Source of the DNA: a virus
Reading direction: 5' to 3' (one strand)
Length of the DNA stretch: 64,000 nt
IMG/VR virus record: IMGVR_UViG_3300031857_000054
Span: 1 to 64,000 of that record
The translations under genes were made by a program, and so were the position numbers. The notes beneath the pieces are model-generated. The model was not told the DNA's origin. It did no database searches and saw nothing but the letters and a program-made list of their open reading frames with translations. Below are positions 22,598-24,756 of the stretch, one piece after another. Position 1 is the first letter of the stretch. Every line of letters starts with the position of its first letter.

Positions 22598-23215
22598 TCA
22601 AGGTTTAATCATCTCCAAAGTGTGTCTGAATGGATCTCCTTCGATTGTATCTACCAACCTAAACATTTCCCATGCAATGTCCCGTATTTCAACTTGTGCG
22701 TGCTCTGAGGCTCTAAGTTTGAGAAAGTTTGCAAAGGAACGCATGTTGAACTGTACGTCAGCGGTAATCTGTGAGTTGTAAGTCTTGAAGAATCTAGCAC
22801 TCTCCTTGGCCCTCTTGCGACCTAGAATAGGTGTTAACGCTTCTAGGGACTCGTGATAAAGATAGTTGCTATCCGCAGTAAACTTTTCTAGTTCTTTAAG
22901 CCAATCAGCAGGCCAATCTTCTGGCATGTAGTACTTGTCCTCTTTTAACTCCTTGTATCTGGCTGATTCAGCATTAATAGAAGCGATGCGGTGCTTAAGT
23001 AGGTGGATGTGTGAGGCAATATCACAAGTTACCAAGAAGTGTACGTTAGCTTTCTCAAACGGAGTTTCGTGTCCTTCAGACCATAACATCTTAATGAGTG
23101 CTGGTATACGTGCTTTCTTCTCTACTGTTAATTCTCTGCTGGTTGATGTCCAAGCAGATAAAGCGATTGTGGTATCGTCTCCATACCAACCTATTAATTC
23201 AACTTTATTTTTCAT
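22598..23215 (-). CDS. thyX: Flavin-dependent thymidylate synthase ThyX
   Basis: 205 aa, converts dUMP to dTMP using FAD, NADPH and methylene-THF. The signature is LLKHRIASINAESARYKEL, matching RHRxxSxNxxSxRY with Lys for the first Arg; HETPFEKANVHFLVTCDI is the upstream conserved HxSPfEh-like strand. C-terminal LRASEHAQVEIRDIAWEMF is also ThyX-like. The N-terminus MKNKVELIGWYGDD is duplicated 680 bp upstream as a remnant (23849-23896), with an HNH endonuclease gene between; the HNH stop overlaps this ATG by 11 bp. Confidence 0.95.
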   Translation of the reverse strand: MKNKVELIGWYGDDTTIALSAWTSTSRELTVEKKARIPALIKMLWSEGHETPFEKANVHFLVTCDIASHIHLLKHRIASINAESARYKELKEDKYYMPEDWPADWLKELEKFTADSNYLYHESLEALTPILGRKRAKESARFFKTYNSQITADVQFNMRSFANFLKLRASEHAQVEIRDIAWEMFRLVDTIEGDPFRHTLEMIKP

Positions 23216-23792
23216 TGTAGTAATATTTTTTTGTTATTTTGTCAAATTTTATTATTCCTTTTTGTACTAACTTAAAAGTTAAACTTTCTAATTGATTATG
23301 GATTAATCTATGTTCTTTCTCATTGGAATACAAAAGTAAGTTGTCGATTTCGTTATTTAATTTATTGCCGTCAATGTGATGTACACCTTCTCCTTTACCA
23401 TTTTTTGTTCTAATTATTTTCCGTCCTAAAAAGTTCTCTAAGACAGCAATATGTTCAGGTCGGTAGGAAGTCCAAGTATCTGTGTCTTCACTAACTTTAA
23501 TATAACGATATCCTCTTTTAGTGATATAAGAATATCCTTTGTATTTAGGATTTTTTTCACCTCTTAATGCAAAAAAAGGAATACCTTTATTCCAAGGAGT
23601 TTTATCTTTTCTAAAAGTATTTCCAGCAGCAAAACCATGCTTAAAGTTGCTTCTACTTAACTTAAAGGTTCGGTTTCCTCTATTTAGTATAGAATCCCAA
23701 GACCTGTTAGGTAGAAGCAACATTAATTCATCTTTTTGAGCAGTTTGAAATTTTTCTTGAAGAATTTGATCTTCATCTTTAGTCCATCTCAT
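23205..23792 (-). CDS. HNH homing endonuclease (free-standing)
   Basis: 195 aa. N-terminal Myb/SANT-like DNA-binding helix set (MRWTKDEDQILQEKF ... LPNRSWDSILNRGNRTFKLS), a TPWNKGIPFFALRGEKNPKYK segment like NUMOD-type repeats, and a GEGVHHIDGNKLNNEIDNLL, YSNEKEHRLIH HNH core with His, Asn and His in place. It is more A/T-rich in codon use than its neighbours. It lies between a thyX 5' remnant and the intact thyX, and a TATCTTTG promoter box sits 8 bp before its ATG. This is a typical mobile endonuclease insertion. Confidence 0.88.
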   Translation of the reverse strand: MRWTKDEDQILQEKFQTAQKDELMLLLPNRSWDSILNRGNRTFKLSRSNFKHGFAAGNTFRKDKTPWNKGIPFFALRGEKNPKYKGYSYITKRGYRYIKVSEDTDTWTSYRPEHIAVLENFLGRKIIRTKNGKGEGVHHIDGNKLNNEIDNLLLYSNEKEHRLIHNQLESLTFKLVQKGIIKFDKITKKYYYNEK

Positions 23793-23799
23793 AATGCTT

Positions 23800-23807
23800 C
23801 AAAGATA
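23800..23807 (-). promoter_or_regulatory. Promoter -7 box for the HNH gene
   Basis: Minus-strand TATCTTTG (TAnnTTTG) 8 bp before the HNH ATG; no clear -33 box. The mobile gene may bring its own promoter, which would now also drive thyX. Confidence 0.45.
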
Positions 23808-23848
23808 GTGTAATTTTTTGGAATTATTAATCAGTTGAATATTTATAA

Positions 23849-23896
23849 TTATTCATCTGATCCGTAATAGCCCAATAGTTCTACTTTATTTTGCAT
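23849..23896 (-). pseudogene. Remnant of a thyX 5' end
   Basis: ATG CAA AAT AAA ... encodes MQNKVELLGYYGSDE then TAA. It aligns with the start of the intact ThyX (MKNKVELIGWYGDD) at nine of the first twelve residues, with DNA that is clearly diverged. It is the orphaned start of a former thyX, cut off by the HNH insertion, and it sits in the expected place after the upstream gene (23904). Confidence 0.8.
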
Positions 23897-24095: not shown

Positions 24096-24352
24096 TCTTC
24101 TTCCATTCTGTTGTAATCGTCTAGAGCTGCTTCAGCAGAGTCTTCTTTACTTGGTAATTTAAGCCAACTTTCAAAATCTAGTAAAGGCAATTTGTTTCTA
24201 TCACATGTAACACAAAATTCTGCATACGCTTGCAATTGCCGACTTTCAATTTCTTTGGCTTTTAGTAATTTCTTTGTAGTTAGCATTCCTTCGTTGTTGT
24301 AGAATTGCTCAATCAACCAATCAACTGCCGTCTGTTGTTTATTGTTTGTCAT
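24047..24352 (-). CDS. Tandem paralogue family protein (TNNKQQT type), 101 aa
   Basis: Begins MTNNKQQTAVDWLIEQFYNN, a motif shared with internal or N-terminal parts of the proteins at 24349 (MSNNKQSSVEWLVEQI) and 24986 (MTDNKEQTAVQLIIQAL). The family is common in Bacteroidota phages and prophages and has no known function. Remainder helical and acidic (EDSAEAALDDYNRMEEEWEME). ATGA overlap with the next gene. Confidence 0.6.
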   Translation of the reverse strand: MTNNKQQTAVDWLIEQFYNNEGMLTTKKLLKAKEIESRQLQAYAEFCVTCDRNKLPLLDFESWLKLPSKEDSAEAALDDYNRMEEEWEMENYNQMKEEQSE

Positions 24353-24756
24353 TTGTTACCTCCGTAGGTTTCGTTGTAGTATTGTTGTGAAAAATCTTCT
24401 GCACTTTGTCGTTTTTCAAGATATTCTAAACCATAAGGCAAATTATTAAGATGAATAAACATATCCATTTGAGCATTTTTAATTTCATCCTTTCGCATTG
24501 CTTCGGCTTGTTCAAGTGCTTTGTCAATATCAAATCCTCTCAATCTCAAATTGATGTCTTTTTTGATTTGTTCAACCAACCACTCTACGCTACTCTGTTT
24601 ATTGTTGCTCATTGTTTTTTCTTTTTCCATAAGTTCTTTAAGTTCTTTTTTTCTTTGTTCTCTTCGTTGTTCTCGGTTTTCAATACGCCATTTGTTTATT
24701 GCTATTGCATCAGATTGCTCGGCATTTTCAAGGAGTTTTTTTATTTTGTCGTTCAT
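24349..24756 (-). CDS. Tandem paralogue family protein, 135 aa
   Basis: Highly charged N-terminal helix (RIENREQRREQRKKELKELM), then MSNNKQSSVEWLVEQIKKDI and a C-terminal QQYYNETYGGNK. The C-terminus is shared with the protein at 24986 (EQYYEKTYGGNK), and the DNA around both stops repeats TTTGTTACCTCCGTA, so these genes arose by duplication. The first 49 residues look like an added segment, because the family motif starts at an internal Met. Confidence 0.6.
   Translation of the reverse strand: MNDKIKKLLENAEQSDAIAINKWRIENREQRREQRKKELKELMEKEKTMSNNKQSSVEWLVEQIKKDINLRLRGFDIDKALEQAEAMRKDEIKNAQMDMFIHLNNLPYGLEYLEKRQSAEDFSQQYYNETYGGNK

What the first reader, a model, noticed from the sequence alone, without database searches (positions are those of the whole stretch)
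22598..23896. HNH homing gene inserted at the thyX start with a duplicated 5' end
Seen: MQNKVELLGYYGSDE-stop at 23896-23849 is an orphan copy of the ThyX start, and the intact thyX (MKNKVELIGWYGDD) begins 681 bp later, with an HNH/NUMOD-like gene between that overlaps its ATG. The two starts differ clearly in DNA sequence. Inference: the endonuclease arrived together with a diverged thyX 5' end from another phage, so the gene was restored while the old start was left behind.
Basis: partly seen in the sequence, partly recalled or inferred. Interest (0 to 1): 0.75.

Follow-up and report, generated by a model that had tools for sequence, protein, structure and literature searches.

The report
Homing gene carrying spare gene start
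A selfish DNA-cutting gene has broken into the start of a phage's thymidylate synthase gene and replaced the start it destroyed with its own altered copy; the same trick turns up in at least five other uncultured phages with two unrelated types of cutting enzyme, so it looks like a recurrent way for such genes to live inside important genes without an intron or intein.

Summary
On the minus strand an orphan thyX start (MQNKVELLGYYGSDE-stop, 23896-23849) is followed by an HNH gene (23792-23205), which overlaps the ATG of an intact thyX (23215-22598) with a different start.

A syntenic phage without the nuclease (L015) has an uninterrupted thyX whose start matches the orphan at 42/45 nt and the working start at 30/45. 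The working start instead resembles L017 (40/45) up to about codon 19; after that the gene is L015-like again. So the orphan is the displaced resident start and the working start is foreign.

This recurs. Among 174 different thyX starts, 6 of the 7 with an upstream nuclease gene found by my search (5 HNH, 1 GIY-YIG) have an orphan, against 2 of 160 without. The four closest HNH genes form one clade, their thyX bodies do not (p-AU 3.5e-5): the nuclease moves between thyX alleles. All four replacement starts carry a rare [DG]DT motif (7/174 overall).

Best reading: a free-standing homing element made of nuclease gene plus substitute 5' end ("cap"), which restores thyX and probably removes the cut site. 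Fungal mitochondrial mobile ORFs are the mirror image; I found no phage precedent. Cleavage is untested.

The parts
23849..23896 (-). Orphan thyX 5' end: resident codons 1-15 (MQNKVELLGYYGSDE) followed directly by TAA
   Evidence: 42/45 nt identical to the start of uninterrupted thyX in syntenic L015
23793..23848 (-). 56-nt leader between the orphan stop and the HNH ATG; no RNA family, no supported promoter
23205..23792 (-). HNH homing-type endonuclease, 195 aa: N-terminal Myb-like DNA-binding region (about 2-47), C-terminal HNH_3 domain (126-160)
   Evidence: Pfam HNH_3 E=3e-7; PHROG HNH families; profile matches Myb repeats E=0.0025; model's top solved-structure match I-HmuI, prob 0.89 but E=0.43; only HNH_3 in the 107-kb record
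23205..23215 (-). 11-nt overlap of the HNH 3' end with the thyX start; physically ties nuclease gene and cap
   Evidence: Sequence; overlaps of 8-25 nt in the other five orphan-bearing nuclease loci
23159..23215 (-). Cap: foreign, substitute thyX codons 1-19 (MKNKVELIGWYGDDTTIAL), with the rare DDT motif at residues 13-15
   Evidence: 89% identical to L017 over 45 nt, 67% to L015; 16 of 20 informative sites L017-like
22598..23158 (-). thyX body, resident from about codon 20 (SAWTSTSR...) on
   Evidence: 89% identical to L015 over codons 20-46; body pairs with L015 in the tree, support 98/97
22598..23215 (-). Intact thyX (flavin-dependent thymidylate synthase) as it now reads, 205 aa
   Evidence: Pfam Thy1 E=6e-35; full-length alignment with relatives

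Best explanation
A free-standing (intron-less, intein-less) homing element consisting of an HNH endonuclease gene fused by overlap to a substitute 5' end of its host gene. Proposed cycle: the nuclease cuts uninterrupted thyX near codons 15-21; repair from an element-bearing phage copies in the nuclease gene plus the substitute codons 1 to about 19 ('cap'); the cap joins the conserved SAWTSTSR segment in frame, so ThyX is again made from one intact ORF; the resident first 15 codons stay behind as an orphan. The cap is diverged, so it no longer offers the resident target and is less likely to be lost by recombination with the orphan. The orphan may serve as the left homology arm in later rounds. 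Shown: orphan is resident, cap is foreign, architecture recurs, nuclease phylogeny conflicts with thyX phylogeny. Inferred: cutting by this nuclease at this site, resistance of the cap, role of the orphan, expression of thyX by coupling to the HNH stop.
For: L015: intact allele equal to orphan plus body, syntenic on both sides. Mosaic breakpoint near nt 57. Same layout in L051 (orphan fused in frame to the HNH), L052, L130, L131 (HNH) and L225/L229 (GIY-YIG). Orphan in 6/7 thyX loci with a detected nuclease vs 2/160 without, Fisher p=7e-9, without the window 1.3e-7. In all six the nuclease stop overlaps the cap ATG by 8-25 nt. Orphans resemble uninterrupted relatives better than caps do: 93 vs 67% (window), 82 vs 65 (L052), 85-87 vs 65 (L130), 94 vs 78 (L131), 83 vs 63 (L225). 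HNH clade of window, L051, L052, L130 (100/100), but their thyX bodies held together rejected, p-AU 3.5e-5; the same for L131+L289, p-AU 0.0013. [DG]DT in 4/4 caps of the HNH clade vs 7/174 overall, p about 1e-6. Related HNHs sit in group I introns of thyX in Vibrio and Alteromonas phages.
Against: No cleavage or homing experiment exists. The DDT motif was noticed after the fact, occurs without a nuclease in L017 and L020, and is absent from the caps of L131 and L225, so it may mark descent rather than resistance. L289 has the nuclease but no orphan; L202 and L038 have orphans with no nuclease, so duplications of this start can arise otherwise. For L051 no close uninterrupted relative was found to tell orphan from cap. 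All carriers but the window's are from uncultured metagenome contigs.
Confidence: 0.8

Rival explanations
1. Ordinary phage mosaicism: illegitimate recombination joined a foreign HNH+thyX-start segment at this place; the nuclease is a passenger that played no part.
For: thyX in these phages is mosaic elsewhere too; L202 and L038 show duplicated thyX starts around non-nuclease DNA.
Against: Orphans are strongly tied to nuclease genes (6/7 vs 2/160) of two unrelated families; in the four HNH-clade cases and the GIY-YIG case the two copies are diverged (57-67% identical), unlike L038 (92%) and L202 (82%); one HNH clade recurs at the same codons of the same gene in unrelated thyX backgrounds.
Confidence: 0.15
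2. The upstream peptide is a leader (regulatory uORF) of the HNH-thyX operon, not a remnant.
For: It is a complete short ORF with start and stop just upstream.
Against: It is homologous to thyX codons 1-15 and 42/45 nt identical to the start of an uninterrupted thyX; relatives without the nuclease lack it; in L051 the equivalent is the N-terminus of the nuclease itself.
Confidence: 0.02
3. A group I intron (or intein) whose 5' exon is the orphan, spliced to the thyX body.
For: Related HNHs are encoded in group I introns of thyX in Vibrio phages pVa5 and 1.097.O and Alteromonas phage AD45-P1.
Against: No group I intron match at E<=5 in the window region, while the same search finds the Vibrio/Alteromonas introns at E=1e-22 to 5e-27; only 56 nt of non-coding DNA; thyX already has a complete ORF with its own start.
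Confidence: 0.02
4. Tandem duplication of the thyX start in situ, followed by insertion of the HNH and divergence of one copy.
For: L038 looks like such a duplication (two copies 92% identical).
Against: In the window both copies have different close relatives (orphan-L015 93%, cap-L017 89%), which in-situ divergence does not produce.
Confidence: 0.03

Closest known systems
Fungal mitochondrial mobile ORFs (mORFs): Allomyces atp6, Glomus sp. atp6/atp9/cox2/nad3 (PMC3630166)
   Same: Endonuclease ORF inserted in an essential gene together with a foreign copy of the gene end it displaces; native end left as an orphan nearly identical to the uninvaded relative (91-98%) while the inserted end is diverged (64-81%).
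   Different: There the C-terminal (3') end is replaced and the nuclease (LAGLIDADG in the atp6 case) lies downstream of the functional gene; here the 5' end is replaced, the nuclease (HNH or GIY-YIG) lies upstream and overlaps the functional start, in phage DNA.
Free-standing (intronless) homing endonucleases of T4-like phages: Seg and Mob genes (PMC2988022)
   Same: Nuclease genes without intron or intein, next to or inside nucleotide-metabolism genes, overlapping a neighbouring ORF.
   Different: T4 ones sit between genes and cut hundreds to thousands of bp away in a neighbour, or split a gene (Aeh1 mobE in nrdA); none is described there with a replacement gene end.
ShiLan insertion in mycobacteriophage methylase genes (PMC11855218)
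   Same: HNH-bearing insertion in a phage gene without detectable intron or intein; the first 11 residues of the insert resemble the 11 residues after the insertion site.
   Different: In-frame insertion in mid-gene; the short similarity was discussed there as an intron-like signature, and the insert is predicted to stay in the protein.
HNH endonucleases encoded in group I introns of thyX (Vibrio phages pVa5 and 1.097.O, Alteromonas phage AD45-P1)
   Same: Homologous HNH (about 35-37% over the shared part), same host gene.
   Different: Carried by a self-splicing intron at other positions in a distant type of thyX; N-terminal region differs.

Membership tests
HNH homing endonuclease (HNH_3) | HNH motif with conserved His-Asn-His | tested here: met
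   HNH_3 above cut-off (30.4 vs 24.8 bits); H138 H139, N151, H161 and H165 kept; model's best solved match I-HmuI, weak
HNH homing endonuclease (HNH_3) | Site-specific DNA cleavage | not testable with these tools
   No biochemistry
Free-standing homing element | Interrupts or neighbours an allele that also occurs without it | tested here: met
   L015 is the uninterrupted allele
Free-standing homing element | Nuclease gene moves independently of the host gene's lineage | tested here: met
   HNH clade vs scattered thyX bodies, p-AU 3.5e-5 and 0.0013
Free-standing homing element | Not within a self-splicing intron or intein | tested here: met
   No Rfam intron at E<=5; intact thyX ORF downstream
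Fungal-type mobile ORF with replaced gene end | Foreign copy of the gene end restores the ORF; native end orphaned | tested here: met
Fungal-type mobile ORF with replaced gene end | Replaced end is the 3' (C-terminal) end | tested here: not met
   Here it is the 5' end
Group I intron-encoded endonuclease | Group I catalytic core around the ORF | tested here: not met
   with positive controls

The most novel reading that the evidence does not exclude
A general third way for homing nucleases to occupy essential phage genes, beside introns and inteins: the nuclease gene is fused to a recoded, cut-resistant copy of the gene start, and the displaced resident start is kept as the left homology arm for the next round. 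Different nuclease families (HNH, GIY-YIG) and possibly other genes (an IMP dehydrogenase in L059) use it.
Probability: 0.45. Interest if true: 0.75.

Novelty: new variant of a known kind. Interest (0 to 1): 0.62.

Why it matters
Homing genes in essential phage genes are usually explained by self-splicing introns, inteins or placement between genes. Here the damage is repaired by carrying a spare gene start, a strategy known only, as far as I could find, as its mirror image in fungal mitochondria. If the nuclease drives it, it explains how the 5' ends of conserved phage enzymes are swapped between phages, and it makes a clean test possible: one short DNA segment should be cut, its substitute should not.

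Tried and rejected
Group I intron or other known RNA in the window: none at E<=5. Leader peptide: refuted by relatives. Promoter in the 56-nt leader: a loose Bacteroidetes-type pattern was no commoner than in shuffled sequence and did not hit the leader. Relatives of the HNH in bacterial/archaeal genome contigs: none in two scans. An orphan upstream of the HNH-dUTPase fusion L042: none found. An orphan in L289 and upstream of HNHs beside distant thyX types in L053, L056, L058: none. Literature searches for a phage case of a nuclease with a duplicated gene end: none found in the open-access library; subscription papers are not covered. A general flank-against-flank scan of about 130 HNH loci recovered the thyX cases plus a few others, of which only L059 and L109 looked meaningful.

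Full report
What is there. The window is part of a 107-kb virus record. On its minus strand, 23896-23849 encodes MQNKVELLGYYGSDE and a stop; 56 nt later begins a 195-aa HNH endonuclease gene (23792-23205); its last 11 nt overlap the start of an intact 205-aa thyX (23215-22598) that begins MKNKVELIGWYGDDTTIAL. The N-terminal region of the HNH protein resembles Myb-type DNA-binding repeats (E=0.0025); the HNH_3 domain is at residues 126-160. An AlphaFold model of moderate quality (pLDDT 71) has the HNH homing endonuclease I-HmuI as its best solved match, without statistical significance. Two contigs from other metagenomes show the same junctions at 99.96-100% identity.

The orphan is the resident start. 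L015 is a relative with the same genes on both sides but no nuclease gene. Its thyX starts MQNKVELLGYYGSDEVIAQSAW; its first 45 nt match the orphan at 42 positions and the working start at 30. The working start is closest to L017 (40/45). Along the gene, sites that distinguish L015 from L017 are L017-like in 16 of 20 cases up to nt 57 and L015-like in 63 of 92 from there to nt 400 (Fisher p about 9e-5; breakpoint picked after inspection). Identity to L015 is 63% over codons 1-19 and 89% over codons 20-46. In the tree of thyX bodies the window pairs with L015 (98/97).

It recurs. A profile of thyX N-termini was run over 281 loci with a recognisable thyX start, 174 of them different, sampled by similarity and not exhaustively. 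Orphan starts were found in eight phages. Six have a nuclease gene between orphan and thyX: the window; L051, where the orphan MNNTVELLGWYGGDKEHAMS is fused in frame to the HNH; L052 (MNNKVELIGHYGSDELHFF*); L130 (MRNKVELLGYYGSDEVIAFI*); L131 (MKNSVELLGYYGYNLG*), with an HNH of another subtype; and L225/L229 (MKNTVELLGY*), with a GIY-YIG nuclease. Two, L202 and L038, have other DNA there. A similarity search with eight nuclease sequences found nuclease genes upstream of seven thyX; six of these have orphans, against two of 160 without (Fisher p=7e-9, without the window 1.3e-7). The eighth set member, L289, has an HNH and no orphan. Nuclease types unlike the eight queries could have been missed. 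In the six, the nuclease stop overlaps the cap start by 11, 17, 8, 8, 25 and 17 nt.

Resident versus substitute. Against the nearest uninterrupted relative, orphan and cap score 93 and 67% (window), 82 and 65 (L052), 85 and 65 (L130), 94 and 78 (L131), 83 and 63 (L225); L051 has no relative close enough to tell. For L225 the body is 92% identical to the uninterrupted L358.

Mobility. The HNHs of the window, L051, L052 and L130 form one clade and those of L131 and L289 another (both 100/100). Their thyX bodies do not follow: L052 pairs with nuclease-free L277 (100/99), the window with L015. Holding the four carriers together is rejected (p-AU 3.5e-5), as is L131+L289 (0.0013). So the nuclease genes have moved between thyX alleles. 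Homologous HNHs also occur in group I introns of thyX in Vibrio phages pVa5 and 1.097.O and Alteromonas phage AD45-P1, and directly upstream of distant thyX types in L053, L056 and L058.

A hint at resistance. Residues 13-15 of the cap are DDT (window, L052, L130) or GDT (L051); such a motif occurs in 7 of 174 thyX starts, the others being L017, L020 and L317; the commonest motif is SDE (98), which is also that of three of the four orphans (p about 1e-6, noticed after the fact). Either these caps descend together with the nuclease or they share a change that spares them from it; the sequence alone cannot tell. Caps of L131 (SDK) and L225 (SDE) lack it.

Mechanism. I think the nuclease cuts uninterrupted thyX near codons 15-21; repair from a carrier brings in nuclease gene and cap; the gene is restored, the old start is stranded. 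In the window the resident codons 16 to about 19 are missing between the two junctions, which is where I would put the cut. Cutting, resistance and the orphan's use as a homology arm are inferences.

Known relatives. In fungal mitochondria, endonuclease ORFs carry a foreign C-terminal end of atp6, atp9, cox2 or nad3 and leave the native end as an orphan (PMC3630166); that is the mirror image. A review of T4 homing endonucleases describes intergenic placement and gene splitting, with no mention of duplication (PMC2988022). The ShiLan insertion in phage methylases has an 11-residue similarity across its insertion site (PMC11855218). I therefore call it a new variant of a known kind.

Limits. Sampling by similarity; uncultured phages; short caps (15-20 codons) with little phylogenetic signal; post hoc breakpoint and motif; no experiment.

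Noticed in passing
L059:2628-4257 (IMGVR_UViG_3300009095_001812): Orphan IMP dehydrogenase 5' end (Pfam IMPDH E=3e-6), then an HNH fused in frame to a second, strongly diverged IMPDH that starts with a copy of the same region: the same layout on another gene, though the downstream IMPDH may be wholly foreign.
   Followed up: partly
L038:1275-1851 and L202:2833-3000 (also L401, L402): Duplicated thyX starts with non-nuclease DNA between the copies (a 154-aa ORF; a short fusion ORF), also breaking near codons 19-21.
   Followed up: partly
L109:2270-3715: C5-methyltransferase gene split by an HNH gene, with SAVGAPHRRDRIVII before and TAVGAYHRRDRIAII after the insert.
   Followed up: no
L042:2551-3486: HNH fused in frame to the N-terminus of a dUTPase, no orphan upstream.
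   Followed up: partly
L046:1757-4022 (Alteromonas phage AD45-P1): thyX interrupted by both an HNH gene in a group I intron and a GIY-YIG gene right behind it.
   Followed up: no
window 24284-24504: About 221 nt present here are missing from the otherwise identical contig L002; the deletion falls in a run of short similar ORFs, two of which start MTNNKQQT.
   Followed up: no
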